NCBI GenBank assembly: GCA_015227615.1 | Contig: JAALGZ010000024.1 | Span: 434,001-498,000, forward strand | DNA length: 64,000 nt | Origin: Labyrinthula sp. Ha | Taxonomy: Eukaryota > Sar > Bigyra > Labyrinthulida > Labyrinthulaceae | Direction: 5' to 3' | In this document: positions 27,444-36,077 of the stretch, piece after piece | Layout: each line of letters opens with the position of its first letter | How positions within the stretch are numbered: position 1 is the stretch's first letter | The notes under the pieces: model-generated | What the model saw: the letters and a program-made list of their open reading frames with translations, nothing else | Told to the model about the DNA's origin: nothing | The model's database searches: none | Program-made: the position numbers and the translations under genes

Positions 27444-27447
27444 TTTC
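27444..27447. repeat. 4-bp target-site duplication, left (TTTC)
   Basis: TTTC directly precedes the 5' LTR and recurs directly after the 3' LTR (34060-34063). A 4-bp duplication is in the range made by Ty3-type integrases. Confidence 0.65.
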
Positions 27448-27631
27448 TGTTCTGTAGTTGTAATAGCAGTTACCTAGTTTGAACATATACATCTTTTTAC
27501 TATATTCCAATCATTAACTTTTAGAACTGTCATAAAAAAAGTTTTCCCTAAGCAAATTTTCTCAAATGTGCAAGTTTATTAAGGGTCATAGTTATTATAA
27601 AGTTAGTACAAGACTATAAAAAAGCCGAATA
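27448..27631 (+). repeat. 5' LTR (184 bp)
   Basis: It begins TGTTCTG and ends GCCGAATA. Aligned by eye without gaps to 33876-34059, it differs at about 10 of 184 positions (about 95% identity), 7 of them transitions. Confidence 0.92.
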
Positions 27632-27648
27632 TTGATCAATATCGGGCT
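27623..27648. repeat. imperfect palindrome across the 5' LTR / internal junction
   Basis: A 26-bp inverted repeat is centred on GATC: 11 of 13 positions pair, with two adjacent mismatches. Its left arm is the end of the LTR and its right arm is where a primer-binding site is expected. No TGG typical of a tRNA-primed site follows the LTR. Confidence 0.7.
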
Positions 27649-27666
27649 AAATTGTACGAGATTGAG

Positions 27667-28566
27667 ATGAGTAAGAAAGATTTCTCCGATTTGTTTGAGA
27701 AATTAACTCAAGTTTTGGATGCCGTCCAAGTGTCGCAAGAGGCGCTACGAAGAGTTAAGTAGCCTATGCTTCCGGAAGAAAAGGATCCCAATTTTGATGT
27801 AGACTTACTGAAGGAATTAGATCCTAAGAAGATTGATCGACTGATCATTCAATACAGGAGACTCTCCAGTAGGCAGCAAAAACGTGTTAATATAGAACAG
27901 AAACTGGTTTTGGTGCCTTTTGAGCACTTCTAGCAGTTGGATAAAGCGAAGAGCAATGATGATATAATCGCCCATCTGAAAGTATTGAGGGATGAAGCTC
28001 GTAAGCAGGATCTAGGTGCGCCTGACCGCATGATAGCCAAAAATATCGATTTTCAAGTGGGAATGAGGGAGGAAAATGCTGTGGCAATAATGTTTACCAA
28101 GGTTAAAAAGTTACTTGCCTTGATGCCGGAGAGTTGCGCTAAATCCAAGAAGAAAATCGCGCTGGCAATTTTAAAAAAGTTACCTAAGTATTTTTGGGTC
28201 AGCAGTGAGGATCTTATACTTAAGCCAGAGTTGCTAGAGTTGGATCACAAGAACCTGCAAAATTATTTGCTACAATGCATACCACCCTCTAGGGTACGCA
28301 AAGTAATGAAAAAAGGTTTACCTTTTGTCAATGATTTACACGAGATGCGAACAAAGAAGGTTTCAGCTTGTACTGTATTTCCCACCATTTCTGCAAAACC
28401 AAATATTACCAAGTCCAAAGTAGACGAGCCCTGCTTATTTTGCCGTAATTATAGTCATCCAGAGAGGAGATGTTCTATTAAGAAAAATGCAAAAGGAGAT
28501 GGTAAAGATGTATCGTCCCCATTGCCATTACCTGCTAAAGATATTATGGATAAATGGAGGATATAG
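27667..28566 (+). pseudogene. gag (capsid/nucleocapsid) of the LTR element
   Basis: The frame opens at ATG 27667, only 35 bp after the LTR. TAG codons at 27760 and 27931 interrupt it, and a third TAG at 28564 ends it; the intervening protein is otherwise coherent and highly charged. Near the end is a CCHC zinc knuckle (CLFCRNYSHPERRC, spacing C-x2-C-x4-H-x4-C, 28432-28473) typical of nucleocapsids. The middle is helical Lys/Leu-rich, as in capsid domains. Confidence 0.75.
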
Positions 28567-28649
28567 TTTCAGGGAAAACGAACAGAACAGCGGAAATCTA
28601 AGCTAAAAAATAAGGAAAACCACCTGAGAATACAGCCACACGTAAAGAT

Positions 28650-29633
28650 GTGGAAACTAACTACGTCGATGTGGACCAATCCATGGCCCAGCCTTCGGTT
28701 TTGACTACGGTTAGCTGGAAGTGTGATGCAAAAATGAGTTTTAGATGCAAAGGAGAGAAGTTGTTAGTAGATGGAATGTTGGACTCTGGAACAGGCATCA
28801 CTGCGGAACCACGTTGGTTAGTTGAGAAGATGTGTGAGAAAGTTTTTCCAGTTGAAGAGTCTACGCGTGTAAAAGTAACCAATGGTTGTTTCCATGAGGT
28901 GCTTCTAGTAGGAGTTATTAGGCCTACTGTGGTCATAAATGGGCTAGTATAATATGATTTGGGCCCGGTGAAGTGTTTGCTAGTTGAGGGTGTGAAGTTG
29001 TGGAGTAAGTTGTTGATTGGGTTTGATATCCTAGAGAGACATGGGATTATCCCTATGCAGATGTTGTTCGATAAGATTAAGACCAAGCAGACTGACCCTA
29101 TTGAAGTTAACGCCACTCAGCTGGAAACTAAGAAATCAACTCGTGAGTTAAGCGACTGGTTCATATCTTCTTTCACTTCATCTAAAAATAAAAGTCAGCA
29201 AGATCTTGATATCCAAATCACGGAGGCGGAGATGGAGCAGTCTGAGAAAGAACCCTATGTTATAAAAAGAAGAGCTCTCTTTAGGGATGAAGCTGTTACC
29301 TTCGATCCACAAGAAGATTCCTTTGTTGATGATGATTTGGATATTGGAGGTAATTTGGATGTCAACGTTGAAGAGGATGTTGCGAGGTTACGACATACTC
29401 TGCAAGATAAGGTGAATCAAAATAAAGATAAATACATGTACCACCAGTGGAGAGAAAAGTTTTTGAAGCTGTTCTTGAATAACGCGGAGGCCTTTGGTGA
29501 CGATTTGAATCCAACGAGGATATTGACATTAAAGCCGATTAAGTGCACGCTTATTCCAAATGCTGATGTTGGTGTCAGAAAATCACATCCTATGGGCCCA
29601 GAAAAAGAAGATTTTCTTCGTTTACGTATCTAA
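28650..29633 (+). pseudogene. pol N-terminal part: retropepsin-like aspartic protease and linker
   Basis: The catalytic DSG is in MLDSGTGI (Asp codon 28782-28784). The C-terminal half of the retropepsin fold (LLIGFDILERHGI) follows in the same frame after a TAA at 28950-28952. A charged linker then leads to TAA 29631-29633, beyond which the same frame enters the reverse transcriptase. Confidence 0.72.
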
Positions 29634-29639
29634 AAGATC

Positions 29640-30420
29640 CTAAAAAATAAGATTATTGCTCCAAATCGAAACCCGGTTCACTCTATGATGAACTTGGGTG
29701 TTCCGAAAGCGGGGCCAAAAAAGTACAGGTTTGTAATGAATTTTCACCCCTTGAATGTAGTGACGAAGAAGATAAATTCCACGTTGCCGAATATAGAGAG
29801 TCAATTGGGAAAAGCGCGAGGTTCCGCGTTTTTGGATAATACGATTTACTTTCAGGTTTTGACTAATTTTCTACAGATAAAAAAAGTCAACCTTTATTTA
29901 CTTTCAATACACCATGGGGTCTTTATTATAGGTTTTTAGGCGCACCACAAGGATGATGTAACACCCCCGTCGTTTTTTAGTGAACGTATTATTTGTGAGG
30001 TCCTCAAATCACAAAAAATATTTTTACCAAAACGTTACAGTGGATAGACGATACAGTTCTTCTAGGAGATACGATTCAAGAATTTTACGACAATACACGG
30101 AAGTTTTTAGAGGGATTAAAACAAAAAAAATACGCTTAAATATCGACAAGTACCGGTTCATAAGCGACAACGCTGTATTTTGTGGGCATAAACTCACTCA
30201 AAAGGATCCCAGACCGGATGACTGTTATGCTAAAAACCCTTTAAGCAGAAAACGTCCCCAATACACTTATGAGTTAGCTCAGATGATTTCACACCTAATT
30301 GGATTGTAGAAGTTTTACCGGAGTTTTCAGAAGTGAGAACCCTAATTACGACGGACAATAAGATAACTGGGAAGCTTAAGACACTGGAACGTAAAAAGAT
30401 CCCCGTTAAATAGACTGACA
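29640..30420 (+). pseudogene. reverse transcriptase of the LTR element
   Basis: RT blocks are visible in alternating frames: YRFVMNFHPLN (finger region), TPWGLYYRFLGAPQG (the family's FxTPfGLyxF...PfG block), the active site WIDD at 30041-30052 (usually Y/F-x-D-D), FCGHKLT, then a thumb-region block GL-x-KFYR with TAG (30307-30309) at the x. Frameshifts fall near an A7 run around 29880 and before the WIDD motif. Confidence 0.82.
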
Positions 30421-30479
30421 CTTTCAAAGATGTCTACAAGAGATTTATTGAACTACTGGAAGATTGTCTTCATACAACT

Positions 30480-30925
30480 CTTGATTATTATGATCCACAG
30501 AAACATATAATAATATTTGTAGATGCAAGCGAAAGATTCTGGAGTTACTATCTTTGCCAGACTGATGAAGAGATACATGTTAAGAACCCTATTTTAGCAA
30601 GCTTTCACGTTATTGAAATATCTTCTGGATACTTTAAAGGCAGTCAATTGGATTGTCATATAAGCAGTAAAGAGTTGTTTCCTGTTATTGAAGCGGACCG
30701 GAAGTTTGCATACATGTTAAGGGGCAATTTTAAAAGGAAGATCCTATTTACGGATCGTAAAAACTTGGTTTATATTTTAAACCCGCAGCTCTGTTCTAAA
30801 AAAGCTTATGCAGAGAGGCTAACCCATTGGGATGTGGCTTTCCAGTAGATTGCGTTAGAAGTTTCCACATAGAAGGGAAGCGAAATTTGGCTGCAGATAT
30901 CCTATCTAGGTGGCCAAATCTTGAA
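30480..30925 (+). pseudogene. RNase H of the LTR element
   Basis: Catalytic positions are visible: FVDAS near 30515-30530, SSKELFPVIEA (second acidic residue), TDRKNLVY (third), and the family C-terminal signature FHIEGKRNLAADILSRWP near 30860-30915. TAG at 30846 and a frameshift just after it interrupt the frame. Confidence 0.82.
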
Positions 30926-31029
30926 TATGAAGTATCTACTCTAGAAATGTTTGCAGTGGAAACAATGCTAGAACAGGAAGACTATCTTAGAAAACTTGAT
31001 GAAAGTTGTATTTCTTGGAGATCTCCTTC

Positions 31030-32172
31030 AAGTTTAGCAGTTTGACCGGTAATGGATGAATTATATGCCAAGAAGCTGCAAGAAAAGGATCTAAAAAAGA
31101 ACTTGAATAAGATTTTGGAAAATAAGAATAAAATTATTCTGACAAGAAGTCTTATCTTGCCTGCTGTGGTACATGGTCATCTTCGTTTCAATCATGGGCA
31201 AAGGAAGTGGAAAAGAAATAGTTGACAAATTCTTATGTTTTACATTCAGATGATTTAAAGGAGGTTTTGAAAACTTCATGGCTCAAATTTAGGTGACAGT
31301 GTTTGCACTGTCAGAAAGCTGTTCATTTAGTCAAGAGGCCATTCAATCTAACGAAACTGGCTACTAGAACAAGGCAAATCCTTCTGTCTGGTTACTTGTA
31401 CCTAAGTAAGAAGGAAGGTTATTTATTGACATTGATTGATTAACTATCTCGTGTAACAGTGTTATTGCACTGTCAATCAGCTAATACTGAAAATGTAGTG
31501 AAAATATTATGGAAGCTTAATAGTTTTTATGAATTAGATGAGAACTTCTTATTGGTTTCTAATCAGGGTTCACATTTTATGAACCAGGTGGTCGATTTAT
31601 TTTTGAAGCAGAGTGGTGGTGCTCGTTATTTTACATGTGCGTATGCGCGGTTTACGAATGGCAGCATCGAGATGCAGAATAGAACTATCCTGAAGCATAT
31701 TAGATCCTTATTATCTGAATTTGGGTTGCCAAGAAAGAGTTGGCCAGATGTGGTTGATAGGGTGCAGTATTTTTTAAATGCTAACCCAATGCGTTTAAGA
31801 GGCAACCTAACTCCGCTCCAGATAATCATGGGCAAAGAGCCAGGTGAAAATAGTATTGGCAAACCGATGGGCTTAGATTTTACCACGGAGAAATTGATGG
31901 ATTTGAATACGTTGGTGGAAGAACTAATGGTTAAATTGGAAAAATATCAGGTTAGGTCCTTTAAATACGCCACTCACATGAAAGAGGATCAGAATGCAAG
32001 ATACAATGATAATGTAAAGACAGGAGTACTTAATTTTGCGACTGGAGAGTATGTGATGATGAGTAAACCAGTTAAATATGAGAAGGTGAAACCTCAATGG
32101 GTTGGACCTTATCAAGCAGTGAAGACCTGCAGTGAACATGTTTACTTAATTCGTTCATTAGATGGAGATTAG
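31030..32172 (+). pseudogene. integrase of the LTR element
   Basis: Remnants of an HHCC zinc domain (HGHLRFNHG; CLHCQKAVHL near 31300) precede the DDE core: LTLID then LSR (first Asp, TAA directly after at 31441), SNQGSHF (second position, usual Asp replaced by Asn), and NGSIEMQNR (catalytic Glu). The FLNANPMR...LTPLQIIMG block and the basic pre-chromodomain segment follow. TGA at 31043 and 31294 and TAG at 32170 are further lesions. Confidence 0.82.
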
Positions 32173-32829
32173 TTCGAGGTTCATGCAACAAGGTTGATGT
32201 TTTTCGCTCCCTCCACGTTCCTACCAAACGCTGCGACGAAAGCAGTTTATCTCAATGACGCTGGTAAATTGGAAGTTAAAGAGTTGTGTGGTTTGAGAAA
32301 ATGTAGGAAGCAGATAGAGGTGAAAGTTTGGTGGCGAGGATTCAATAAAGAAAGCGATAAAACTTGGGAACCAGTTGTGACGATAGCTGAAGACCTTCCA
32401 GATGTAGTAATAGAGTATTTGAGAAGTCAAACATCGTTGTTGGCCAAGGAGACGTTGCTAATGCTGTCAAGATTATTTGATTTGGGTGCATCGGCTACGA
32501 CAAGTGTGGTAGGGGTATGTTCGGTTGGAGTCAATTATGATTTGATTACTGTACCAGCTGATGATGAGGTTGCATTCAAAGTGGGTTGGTCGAAAGCTGA
32601 GAAAGAGTTACTACGTCAGTGTGTTAAGAAATACGCTCTTGGGAGTTTTCAAGAATATGCTAGACACCTCCCATCTATGAATCGTCAGCAACTCTATGGA
32701 ATGCTGCAAAAGTTGTGTGTTAAAAAAAGCGGCGAGAAGTTACCTAGGGATGCATTTGGATCTCGTGGAAGTTCGCAAGAAGAATATGGATGCATATGGT
32801 TGTGCGTACTATGTGAAAAGGAAGTTTAG
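32173..32829 (+). pseudogene. integrase tail: chromodomain followed by a Myb/SANT-like domain
   Basis: In the integrase frame, FEVHATRL is the usual link to a chromodomain. The chromodomain core VKVWWRGFNKESDKTWEP lies near 32320-32375 and should target integration to specific chromatin. About 60 residues later GWSKAEKELLRQCVKKYALG...YARHLPSMNRQQLYGML (32584-32705) has the three-helix, regularly spaced hydrophobic pattern of Myb/SANT domains. A frameshift follows at about 32750-32820. The chromodomain call is firm; the Myb call is by pattern only. Confidence 0.62.
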
Positions 32830-33852
32830 TTCCTCTAAGTTGGTTAGACTGCAAAGATTTTTCACTATATTAAAATATCACAAGATGCATTGCAGATTGA
32901 AAAGAAAAGCTAATTAGTATCAAGTCATGCAGTATTATGATGTAGAAGAATACGAAGGGCCGAGAAATTATGTAATGAAACTACGTTTGGGTAAAGAATT
33001 GGACAATATATATCCACCGGTAGCTAGGCGTGATGTCGCTGTTGAATTGCCCAAGTAGGAAAATAAATTGATTGAAGCACATGATTACCATATTGAGAAG
33101 AAAGTACTGATAAAATATCCAGATGAGATAAACCATAAACTGCAGGATGATGTGAAACTGGGACAGTTAGATAAGTTTAACGTGCCCGACGTAGGAGTTT
33201 CTCTGGATGAATATATTAGCAACTTATTTTGGTTGAGGTGCATGTTCGTTAAGAAAGCTTATTGGATTCAACCTGTAGCTTCAATTAAGATGGTTAAAGA
33301 TGTTAGAAGTTTCTTGAAGAATAACCAAGAGCGAGTTGACGTCTTATTGATAGACCCACCATATTCTTGGTGTGGACCCAATCCAACTCGCGGACCTGCT
33401 CATCAGTATGGCACTTTAAGCTATCACGAAATTACCAACCAACCGTTGGGAAAAGCTGTGGCTAATACCTTGGTAGCTGTCTGGACTATTACTTCGAAAA
33501 AAAAATGTTGTTTTAGAAATGTTTAAGCAGCAGAATATTGAATATTTGGACAGGATTGTATGGATAAAAACCACAATAGTGGGTAAGTTGAGGTCAAGTT
33601 TAGGGCGGCTGACACAAAAATGCACGGAAGAGTTGATATTTGGGAAAGTTAAAGAATTCCAAGAAGCAATCTTAAGTATGAACTTTGGAAAGGAATGTTG
33701 TATTATTTCCCGTATTAGGAAATTGCAGAAAGCCGCGTTACTTCAAAGAGTTGATTGACTCTAAGTTCGAGAAAGGTGCTAAAAAATTGAAATTATTTGT
33801 GAGAAAGAATAATTTGGCAAATGATTGGAAGTCTGTAGGTTTACAGCTATAA
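32830..33852 (+). pseudogene. MT-A70-family adenine-N6 methyltransferase encoded by the LTR element
   Basis: Read in pieces: VDVLLIDPPYSWCG with the catalytic DPPY at 33353-33364 (DPPW in most MT-A70 enzymes), a Y-x-x-L-S-x-x-E-I helix and VWTIT strand as in METTL3/4/14 relatives, WIKTT near 33560, LGRLTQKCTEELIFGK, then the family C-terminal signature KKLKLFVRKN...WKSVG, ending at TAA 33850-33852. Breaks: TAG at 32915 and 33056, a shift in an A9 run at 33497-33505 and another shift near 33725-33740. It ends 23 bp before the 3' LTR, so it is the last domain of the element. Expected activity in an intact relative: N6-adenine methylation of DNA or RNA; which one cannot be told here. Confidence 0.78.
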
Positions 33853-33866
33853 TGTCAAACGTAGTC

Positions 33867-33872
33867 AAGGGG
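33867..33872 (+). other. candidate polypurine tract (AAGGGG)
   Basis: A short purine run ends 3 bp before the 3' LTR, where plus-strand synthesis is primed in LTR elements. It is short for a polypurine tract, but it is the only purine run at the right place. Confidence 0.45.
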
Positions 33873-33875
33873 CAA

Positions 33876-34059
33876 TGTTCTGCAATTGTAATATCAGTTG
33901 CCTAGTTTGGACATATACATCGTTTTGCTATATTCTAATCATTAACTTTTAGAACTGTCATAAAAAAAGTTTTCCCTAAGCAAGTTTTCTCAAATGTGCA
34001 AGTTTATTAAGGGTCATAGTTATTATAAAGTTATTACAAGACTATAAAAAAGCCGAATA
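33876..34059 (+). repeat. 3' LTR (184 bp)
   Basis: Same length and termini as the 5' LTR, no gaps, about 10 substitutions. It ends 169 bp before the ATG of the next gene and so occupies its promoter region. Confidence 0.92.
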
Positions 34060-34063
34060 TTTC
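34060..34063. repeat. 4-bp target-site duplication, right (TTTC)
   Basis: Matches 27444-27447 exactly. Confidence 0.65.
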
Positions 34064-34228: not shown

Positions 34229-36077
34229 ATGAACAATCCTCTTGTTAATACTCCAAAAACTACCTCTAATCCTGAACCTGAAAAGAAGCAACGGGCAAAA
34301 CCAAAGCGTTGGACTCCAGAAGAAGAAAAGCTTTTCGAAGAAGGTCTAGAAAAGTATGGAAGAGATTGGAATGCAGTTGCTGGAAACATAAAAACCGTAT
34401 ATAATTCAGTTAAATTACTTTATTTAGCGCGAATCTAAAGCTGTAAAGTCACATGCACAAAAACATTTTATGAAATTATACAAAGAAAACAAAGAATTAC
34501 CACAAAAAGTAAGAGAATCTGGTGAAGGATATACAATATCTGGAAAACCGTTAGATGTTAATTCAGGAGCAGCAAGAATGTATGGGTTAAAAGGACCTGA
34601 AAGTAAAAAGCAATACCTATTAACACGAAATAAAAAATATCTTTCTAAACTTTTGACGCATAAATTAATTCAACCTGGGCCATGTAACCCTAGTTTTTAA
34701 TTTATTCGTTTAGTTTTGGTTATTGTAACGGATAAAAAGATAGAAGGAAGGTTGACTGAAGAAATGAAGTTTGTTTTTGAAGGAAAAGAATATGTTGCAC
34801 AAGAGTTTGAAGGTTTTTTGATTGAAAAGTTGGAACTTAATCTCTTCACAGATTTGTTGTTTAAAGAGGGAGATGAGTTCAAAAACTTGAAGGATCAGGG
34901 ATTAAGTGAAGGATTTAAATTTCAAAGGCAAAAGAAAAGAGCACCAAAAGCTATAAAACCACCAAAACCAAAGAAAGAGAAGAAAACAGTTGATCCTATT
35001 CAAAAAAAGATTAAAATCCAGGAGAGAATAGCTAATAGAGAACGCCTAACCAAGTTGAAGAATAAGATTTTATACGATGAGAAAGGTTTTGCAAATACAG
35101 ATTATGCGAAAAGACGAAGTAGAAGAACAAGGTCAACCCTTCAAAAAGCTTTGGTTGGCGAAAGTTCTGTTATTCCTCAACTTTTTGAATGCCAAACATA
35201 TGAAGAGTACAATCGAAACATCGTTCAAAATAAATTACCAAATGGTGATATGCTTTTTCAACCGTATAAAGTGGTTGTAGCACCATCAGTAGGTCTTATA
35301 ACCGAGGTACACGCACATCTGTCTCTACAAGAGATCATTGGATATTTAGCTGGATACATAAGAGTTGATGAGAAAGGAAAAGAAACAATTTATGTAACTC
35401 ACGCTTTCCCTGGTAGATCAATGACTGATTATAGTGCTTCTGGAATTGAATGTGAACTAGATCCACAATCATCTGTTTTAATCCACGAAGAAATAGAGGA
35501 TATTAATGAAGAGAGAGTTAAAAAAGGGGAACATGAAATCATTCTTGTGGGTTGGTATCATACGCATCCTACATTTTTGTGTACGCCTAGTGATTGGGAT
35601 ATAATAAATCATACCAATCATCAACACATGTTTGATGGTCGGTTTGTCGGTTTAATAATATCCCCATATTTAGATACAAATGTAGTAGCAAATAATTCCG
35701 GGCACGAGTTTATAACAACGAGCTCCTGGTTTCATACTGTTTATCCATATGATCAAGAGCATACATTTAAGATAGATGTTGAAATTTTGGAGTTTCAAGG
35801 TGCTAGAGATGAGGATTCGTTCAAGTTTATTTCAGAGAAGTTGAGAAGTTTGGTTTTATCTAATCCGAATGAAATGTTTCGATGGTACTCAAGTTATGAA
35901 CAGAAGTTGGATTTAAGTGAAACCTGGGTTAAAAAGATAAAATACAGAGAAAAGCTGGATTCTGTTTTTGAGCGATGGTTACCAGATGTTGTACGGGAGT
36001 TGAAGAAGGATCCAGGTTTTGAGCTGGAAGAGTTTGTGAACAAGATGGTTTCAGGATTCCTGGATAAAGGAAGTTGA
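34229..36077 (+). CDS. Myb/SANT + JAMM (MPN+) deubiquitinase, MYSM1-like, three exons
   Basis: Exons are 34229-34396, 34428-34683 and 34714-36077 (595 residues; introns 31 and 30 nt). Residues about 26-75 form a Myb/SANT domain with WTPEEEKLFEEGLEKYGRDW and, across the first intron, KAVKSHAQKHF, the SHAQK(Y/H)F class. A Lys-rich central region (about 210-290) may be nuclear-localising. The C-terminal half is an MPN+ domain: an early Glu in HLSLQEIIGYL and the complete JAMM zinc motif HTHPTFLCTPSDWD (H-x-H-x7-S-x2-D), so it should be catalytically active. In animals MYSM1 removes ubiquitin from histone H2A. Unlike MYSM1, I see no clear SWIRM domain between Myb and MPN. The first-intron splice is needed to complete the Myb domain. 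Confidence 0.87.

What the first reader, a model, noticed from the sequence alone, without database searches (positions are those of the whole stretch)
32173..33852. A chromovirus retrotransposon that carries a Myb-like domain and an MT-A70 adenine methyltransferase
Between the chromodomain and the 3' LTR lies about 1.4 kb of extra coding sequence. It shows a Myb/SANT-like helix pattern, a DPPY catalytic motif with the surrounding MT-A70 strands and helices, and the MT-A70 C-terminal LFxR...N...W..VG signature, ending 23 bp before the LTR. Cytosine methyltransferases in Ty3-type elements and Dam-like enzymes in DIRS elements are known; I do not recall a chromovirus with Myb plus MT-A70. Inference: an intact relative could modify its own DNA or RNA, for example to mark its copies or evade or exploit host adenine-methylation-based silencing, with Myb and chromodomain as targeting modules.
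Basis: partly seen in the sequence, partly recalled or inferred. Interest (0 to 1): 0.88.

Follow-up and report, generated by a model that had tools for sequence, protein, structure and literature searches.

The report
Retrotransposons carrying a DNA-adenine methyltransferase
The window holds a broken copy of an old, abundant family of jumping genes in a single-celled eukaryote whose protein ends in an enzyme related to those that put methyl marks on DNA adenines, so these elements may write their own epigenetic marks.

Summary
Confirmed, and larger than reported. The window element is a decayed Ty3-type LTR retrotransposon (184-bp LTRs, TTTC duplication) with chromodomain, Myb-like domain and frameshifted MT-A70 domain. 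It belongs to a large clade: searches of the 50.8-Mb host genome give about 325 MT-A70 places, and 123 of 150 scored Ty3-type RNase H hits have one 1.1-3.7 kb downstream (controls: 3 and 0). Ten relatives chosen for long open frames all encode RT, RNase H, integrase and MT-A70; nine show LTR pairs 94-99.8% identical. RT and MT-A70 trees share 10 of 10 splits, and 20 of 21 same-family close pairs have dN/dS 0.07-0.41, so the enzyme was most simply gained once and is under selection. Its nearest solved relative is Tetrahymena MTA1 (AMT1), a DNA 6mA writer; 39 of 40 domains sampled carry a P-x-RG motif shared with AMT1 and absent from ten other MT-A70s. Trees leave AMT1 ancestry unresolved, and 13 of 40 domains have non-standard catalytic motifs. 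In one subclade the protease lies between integrase and methyltransferase. Cytosine methyltransferases in Gypsy and Dam in DIRS elements are known; my searches found no report of MT-A70 in an LTR retrotransposon. Activity is untested.

The parts
27444..27447 (.). 5' copy of target-site duplication TTTC
   Evidence: sequence directly
27448..27631 (+). 5' LTR, TG...AATA, 184 bp
   Evidence: direct repeat 95%; C77 and C7 LTR hits
27937..28566 (+). gag-like ORF with a CCHC zinc knuckle (CLFCRNYSHPERRC)
   Evidence: by position and motif only
28650..28952 (+). protease-like ORF (DSGTG motif), upstream of RT
   Evidence: motif only
29586..30291 (+). reverse transcriptase, broken over three frames
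   Evidence: local RT profile, E 2e-25, 4e-23, 7e-11
31459..32172 (+). integrase C-terminal region by position; no Pfam hit at E<=0.1
   Evidence: (0 families); position before the chromodomain as in relatives
32272..32421 (+). chromodomain
   Evidence: PF00385 E=1.9e-5
32584..32730 (+). Myb/SANT-like domain
   Evidence: local profile E=1.1e-11; PF00249 E=0.021
33260..33849 (+). MT-A70 domain, AMT1-like, frameshifted
   Evidence: local profile in three frames
33353..33364 (+). catalytic motif DPPY
   Evidence: sequence
33380..33394 (+). NPTRG motif shared with AMT1
   Evidence: sequence
33867..33875 (+). purine-rich stretch AAGGGGCAA before the 3' LTR (polypurine-tract-like)
   Evidence: sequence; inference
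33876..34059 (+). 3' LTR
34060..34063 (.). 3' copy of target-site duplication TTTC

Best explanation
A large, old clade of chromodomain-bearing Ty3-type LTR retrotransposons has, at the C-terminus of its Pol polyprotein, a conserved chromodomain - Myb-like - MT-A70 module; the window copy is a decayed member. The MT-A70 is AMT1-like and was probably captured once from an AMT1-type (DNA 6mA) methyltransferase before the clade radiated. Most likely mechanism (inferred): after processing, or as an integrase-linked tail, the enzyme N6-methylates adenines in the element's own double-stranded cDNA or newly integrated copies. The chromodomain and Myb-like domain hold it at chromatin, and 6mA gives the new copy the mark of transcriptionally permissive chromatin, countering silencing. 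Shown: architecture, copy number, co-inheritance, selection, AMT1 affinity by profile score and motif. Inferred: substrate, self-targeting, anti-silencing.
For: Architecture: 10 of 10 polyproteins read have RT, RNase H, integrase and MT-A70 hits (MT-A70 and RT over the Pfam cut-off in 10 of 10; integrase over it in only 3 of 10); chromodomain in 9 of 10. LTR pairs in 9 of 10. Linkage: 123 of 150 RNase H hits have MT-A70 downstream (median 3450 bp), controls 3 and 0 of 150. Co-phylogeny: 10 of 10 splits shared, shuffled mean 0.26, maximum 3. Selection: of 21 same-family pairs with synonymous difference under 0.6, 20 have dN/dS 0.065-0.410, each Fisher p<0.05 (pairs share copies and are not independent). 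16 of the 20 are in the DPAW subfamily; the others are three other families (0.065, 0.070, 0.149) and the window's own family (C77 vs C7, 0.078). AMT1 affinity: PDB profile search MTA1 228.7 bits, METTL3 150.7, METTL14 84, METTL4-type 69, MTA9 40; P-x-RG after the catalytic motif in 39 of 40 element domains and both AMT1 rows, 0 of 10 other MT-A70 rows. Myb-like profile hits in the 5 other MT-carrying loci tested and in the window family, none in 3 non-carriers. 6mA at permissive regions with H3K4me3: PMC12695648 (passages and section 6).
Against: No 6mA data for this host and no assay. 26 of 40 sampled domains have DPPW or DPPY, but 8 (one subfamily) have DPAW and five others DLPF, DFPY, DPSW, DAPW, DPPH; the sample is not random. 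So some copies, including young ones, may be catalytically poor. Trees do not place the element enzymes next to AMT1: the label needs 2-3 changes, one subclade even sits nearer METTL3/AMT2/5; one clade is not rejected (AU p 0.15-0.19). One same-family pair of two broken copies has dN/dS 1.02. AMT1 normally co-occurs with AMT6/7 and p1/p2; whether the element enzyme needs partners is unknown. In Trichomonas, nanopore data show 6mA on transcribed genes without enrichment in transposable elements (PMC12695648, passage). Structure models are weak (mean pLDDT 56 and 44).
Confidence: 0.6

Rival explanations
1. The MT-A70 methylates RNA (element transcripts, e.g. for packaging, stability or translation), like METTL3.
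For: METTL3 is the second-best relative in sequence (150.7 bits) and tops the Foldseek list of the L010-type module; no strong host METTL3 hit was found (the best hit is the host AMT1-like gene at 130.7 bits), so the element could supply a missing activity.
Against: MTA1 beats METTL3 by 78 bits, tops the Foldseek list of the L018-type module, and the P-x-RG motif is shared with AMT1, not METTL3.
Confidence: 0.18
2. The domain is kept for a non-catalytic job (nucleic-acid binding, dimerisation with host AMT1, or as an AMT7/METTL14-like partner).
For: 8 of 40 domains have DPAW, and this subfamily is under purifying selection (16 of 16 pairs) and has a member with LTRs 99.8% identical.
Against: 26 of 40 domains keep DPPW/DPPY; three DPPW-type families show dN/dS 0.065-0.149 (motif of one member of one pair unread). 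K-P, E-x-F-G-R and N positions are invariant or nearly so in A1 (their SAM-site roles are recalled).
Confidence: 0.15
3. The association is a passenger: repeated chance capture or insertion next to MT-A70 genes, without function.
For: The window copy is dead.
Against: Single long ORFs, near-fixed distance, identical RT and MT-A70 tree splits and dN/dS below 1.
Confidence: 0.02

Closest known systems
KnitGypsy-Dnmt3 (Gypsy LTR elements of Klebsormidium nitens; de Mendoza et al. 2018, PMC5890265, passages read)
   Same: Methyltransferase inside the Pol ORF of Gypsy elements, captured from a eukaryotic family, purifying selection (paper: Ka/Ks < 0.2).
   Different: Cytosine C5 enzyme (Dnmt3), and the paper describes the repeat structure as DIRS-like; here MT-A70 (adenine), a chromodomain-Myb module, ordinary direct LTRs.
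DIRS elements with Dam-like N6-adenine methylases (cited in PMC5890265 and PMC6338049, passages)
   Same: Retroelement-borne adenine methyltransferase.
   Different: Bacterial Dam type, tyrosine recombinase; here MT-A70 and an rve-type integrase.
AMT1/MTA1 (MTA1c) DNA 6mA methyltransferase
   Same: Best sequence match among solved structures, P-x-RG motif, DPPW-type site.
   Different: A host complex with AMT7 and p1/p2; here fused in cis to integrase, chromodomain and Myb-like domain.
Bdelloid N4CMT (PMC8885841, passages)
   Same: Amino-methyltransferase fused to a chromodomain ('histone-read-DNA-write').
   Different: Bacterial N4C enzyme, host gene, deposits 4mC at transposons.
ParB-methyltransferase accessory protein of Sola1-1_Ec32 (PMC12477816, passages)
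   Same: Transposon-borne DNA-binding plus N4C/N6A methyltransferase.
   Different: DNA transposon, separate gene, domains typical of prokaryotes.

Membership tests
Ty3/Gypsy LTR retrotransposon | direct LTRs with target-site duplication | tested here: met
   LTR pairs in the window and 9 of 10 copies. TTTC in the window; exact 4-bp duplications at the LTR ends in L010, L016, L017; in L009, L014, L018 only with shifted ends, which chance can give; none found in L012 (stretch cut), L013, L015
Ty3/Gypsy LTR retrotransposon | order PR-RT-RNaseH-IN | tested here: met
   RT-RNaseH-IN order in 10 of 10. PR motif before RT in L012-L015, L017 and (as DLGA) L018; NOT in L009, L010, L011, L016, where it lies after the integrase
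Chromovirus | chromodomain at the integrase C-terminus | tested here: met
   Pfam hit in 9 of 10 polyproteins, 6 of them over the curated cut-off; window just under it
Chromovirus | RT groups with known chromoviruses | not tested
   no named Ty3 reference set at hand
AMT1 (MTA1) methyltransferase | MT-A70 fold and Pfam domain | tested here: met
   PF05063 over cut-off in 10 of 10; Foldseek MTA1/METTL3 on weak models
AMT1 (MTA1) methyltransferase | closest to AMT1 among MT-A70 families | tested here: inconclusive
   profile scores and P-x-RG motif favour AMT1; trees unresolved
AMT1 (MTA1) methyltransferase | DPPW catalytic motif | tested here: inconclusive
   DPPW 19, DPPY 7 of 40; 13 of 40 carry other motifs and 1 could not be read
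AMT1 (MTA1) methyltransferase | 6mA deposition on DNA with AMT6/7 and p1/p2 partners | not testable with these tools
   needs assay or 6mA reads
DIRS with Dam | tyrosine recombinase and Dam-type enzyme | tested here: not met
   rve integrase and MT-A70 instead
DNMT-bearing Gypsy | C5-cytosine methyltransferase in Pol | tested here: not met
   the only methyltransferase hit at E<=0.05 is PF05063

The most novel reading that the evidence does not exclude
A retrotransposon clade that carries, in cis with its integrase, a complete read-bind-write module (chromodomain, Myb-like, AMT1-type 6mA writer) and has kept it through its radiation in this genome: each insertion could stamp itself with the permissive-chromatin mark of the host. 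Alongside it, the DPAW subfamily may have become a non-catalytic partner, repeating inside mobile elements the active/inactive MT-A70 pairing of METTL3-METTL14 and AMT1-AMT7.
Probability: 0.35. Interest if true: 0.88.

Novelty: new variant of a known kind. Interest (0 to 1): 0.76.

Why it matters
Mobile elements that encode cytosine methyltransferases are one of the few known cases of a parasite writing host-type epigenetic marks. This would add the other DNA mark, 6mA, through a eukaryotic AMT1-like enzyme, in hundreds of LTR elements in one genome that also has a host AMT1-like gene. It makes directly testable whether 6mA protects or activates transposons. A 2025 survey of 231 genomes and transcriptomes describes MT-A70 families as relatively static after the last common eukaryotic ancestor (PMC12695648, passages); hundreds of element-borne copies in one genome are an exception and a warning for MT-A70 gene counts in protists. 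The relocated protease shows that even the core Ty3 order is not fixed.

Tried and rejected
Window MT-A70 piece against Pfam: no hit; only profiles from relatives detect it. AMT1 ancestry by tree: unresolved; element rows need 2-3 changes, AU tests p 0.15-0.29 reject neither one clade nor an elements+AMT1 clade. dN/dS between distant copies is saturated and not used. Relatives outside this genome: three protein searches found EukProt proteins with one MAKER naming scheme (100% and 98% identical to copies here, or 39-44%), one ZZ-bearing AMT2/5-type protein and other MT-A70s; these searches need shared 5-mers and length-matched candidates, so absence elsewhere is not shown. Viral contigs: 40 loci match at 21-47% identity, not examined further; one 1.5-kb piece against the phage collection gave no match. 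Structure prediction is too weak to show domain packing. Organism: Cochliopodium minus considered for genome size and rejected (1474 scaffolds, 26.33% GC; passages); the 18S search did not complete. Older surveys of eukaryotic MT-A70s (such as Iyer et al. 2016, recalled, not seen) could mention transposon-borne forms.

The tree drops 16 of 41 rows (METTL4, 5 rows that I labelled bacterial, 2 that I labelled METTL14-like, 8 partial or divergent element rows). The motif count leaves out duplicate places, host AMT1, L042 (partial) and second pieces of broken copies; it allowed a looser catalytic motif for element rows than for reference rows; the 40 include 8 near copies of one subfamily. Of 76 RNase H hits first lacking MT-A70, 7 that I picked were read: 4 have a divergent MT-A70, 3 do not; 27 of 150 remain without, some at contig ends. 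One search used 12 of the 14 close loci named (two scored too low) and printed 17 pairs, 16 of them in one subfamily; redid this on 39 rows (741 pairs): 26 have synonymous difference under 0.6, of which 5 join different families at or near saturation (dN/dS 0.59-1.11) and are left out, 21 are within families.

Full report
Observation. The window lies at C71:434001-498000 of a 50.84-Mb, 153-contig eukaryotic genome that is not named to me. The element spans 27448-34059: two 184-bp LTRs (repeat 95% identical) flanked by TTTC. Its Pol is broken; RT pieces lie in three frames. The chromodomain is found by Pfam just under the curated cut-off, the Myb-like domain only weakly, and the open piece of the MT-A70 region has no Pfam hit at E<=0.1. 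A profile made from ten related elements finds MT-A70 in three successive frames, 33260-33849, with E 2e-20, 3e-16 and 9e-9.

Relatives in the same genome. PF05063 scored 150 of 354 candidates, all 150 over the cut-off. The window's own family has two further LTR-paired copies, both with MT-A70. I read ten other copies, chosen for long open frames. All ten carry RT, RNase H, integrase and MT-A70 hits (integrase over Pfam's cut-off in 3 of 10); nine have a Pfam chromodomain hit, six over the cut-off. Eight are a single ORF of 2061-2652 aa (L011 is cut by the stretch fetched); L015 and L016 are split in two. Nine have LTR pairs at 94.1-99.8% identity; for L011 none was found in the stretch fetched.

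Linkage. The union of six searches gives about 325 MT-A70 places, broken copies and one host gene included (how the lists were pasted is told under Tried and rejected). Of 150 scored Ty3-type RNase H hits (379 candidates), 123 have an MT-A70 1.1-3.7 kb downstream on the same strand, median 3450 bp; controls: 3 have one upstream on the same strand, 0 downstream on the opposite strand. Of the 27 without, three (L039-L041) were read and show none; the two whose RT could be placed form a separate clade at 100/100.

History. On 13 elements with both domains the RT and MT-A70 trees share 10 of 10 splits, some of them weakly supported (shuffled labels: mean 0.26, maximum 3). The module was thus most simply gained once and inherited with the element. 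Of 21 same-family MT-A70 pairs with synonymous difference under 0.6, 20 have dN/dS 0.065-0.410 (each Fisher p<0.05; pairs share copies); 16 of these are in the DPAW subfamily, and 4 are in other families, the window's own included (C77 vs C7, 0.078). The exception, two broken copies, has 1.02. So the domain has been under purifying selection during spread, in catalytically standard and non-standard families alike.

What the enzyme is. A profile of ten modules scores Tetrahymena MTA1 at 228.7 bits, METTL3 150.7, METTL14 84, METTL4-type 69, MTA9 40. The motif P-x-RG, just after the catalytic motif, is in 39 of 40 element domains (the match to the other, L026, does not include that stretch) and in both AMT1 proteins, and in none of ten other MT-A70 rows tested. 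Foldseek, on weak models (pLDDT 56 and 44), ranks MTA1c first for one subclade and METTL3 first for the other. Trees leave the exact root open. The host has an AMT1-like gene of its own, C91:220698-221276 (L008), which pairs with Tetrahymena MTA1 (97/84, 93/87) rather than with the element enzymes. Searches with METTL3 and METTL4 fragments gave no strong host METTL3 or METTL4; introns could hide them.

Catalytic motif. DPPW 19, DPPY 7, DPAW 8, DLPF 1, DFPY 1, DPSW 1, DAPW 1, DPPH 1, unread 1 of 40. The DPAW subfamily has an intact member with 99.8% identical LTRs and is under selection, so not all copies need act as catalysts.

Myb-like domain. A profile from nine elements hits L015, L042-L045 and the window family (E 5e-18 to 1e-11), and none of the three non-carriers. 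The module is therefore chromodomain - Myb-like - MT-A70 in every carrier tested, though Pfam's own Myb model is met over its cut-off only by L011.

Moved protease. In L012-L014 and L017 the DSGA protease motif lies before RT (L018 has DLGA there; L015 has DTGA in its upstream ORF). In L009, L010, L011 and L016 the only such motif lies between the chromodomain/Myb-like region and MT-A70. For L011 Pfam gives RVP at residues 2196-2308, E=0.0018, just under its cut-off; profile comparison of the two protease regions gives probability 97.6, E=3.8e-12; the moved region's best PDB match is retroviral-like aspartic protease 1, E=5.5e-4. I know of no Ty3 element with this order (recall; not searched).

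Mechanism. [quoted passage not shown]). The likeliest reading is that the element writes 6mA on its own cDNA or new copies, with chromodomain and Myb-like domain as tethers, to keep copies expressible. De Mendoza et al. discuss such roles for retrotransposon DNMTs, including the chromatin state of the insertion site and cDNA protection (PMC5890265, passages). This step is inference.

Literature. Searches for MT-A70, adenine methyltransferase, 6mA and retrotransposon terms found no report of MT-A70 in an LTR retrotransposon; I saw listings for most and passages of five of the papers on this question. The library holds only open-licence papers, so this is not proof of absence.

Noticed in passing
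window 34229-36077: Just 3' of the element (about 166 bp from TSD to ATG) lies a host gene with a SHAQKYF-type Myb repeat (recognised by eye) and a JAB/MPN domain (PF01398 E=3.2e-9), MYSM1-like; the element sits in its 5' flank.
   Followed up: partly
L009, L010, L011, L016: Aspartic protease located between integrase/chromodomain/Myb-like region and methyltransferase instead of before RT.
   Followed up: yes
L018 3290-3652: Protease motif reads DLGA instead of DSGA in an otherwise open polyprotein with 99.3% identical LTRs.
   Followed up: no
C62:563456/570271, C1:1636119/1643108, C132:835172/842412: Pairs of similar-scoring MT-A70 hits about 6.8-7.2 kb apart on one strand, as expected for tandem elements sharing an LTR.
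   Followed up: no
L008 1027-2007: Host AMT1-like gene, 327-aa open frame, suggesting that this organism may have genomic 6mA.
   Followed up: partly
P0023, P0004: MAKER models of element proteins bear AED 0.44 and 0.39, hinting at some transcript or protein evidence; the evidence itself was not seen.
   Followed up: no
L009 and L017 flanks: Further MT-A70 domains of other element copies lie next to these elements (L009_1, L017_1), suggesting clustering of insertions.
   Followed up: no
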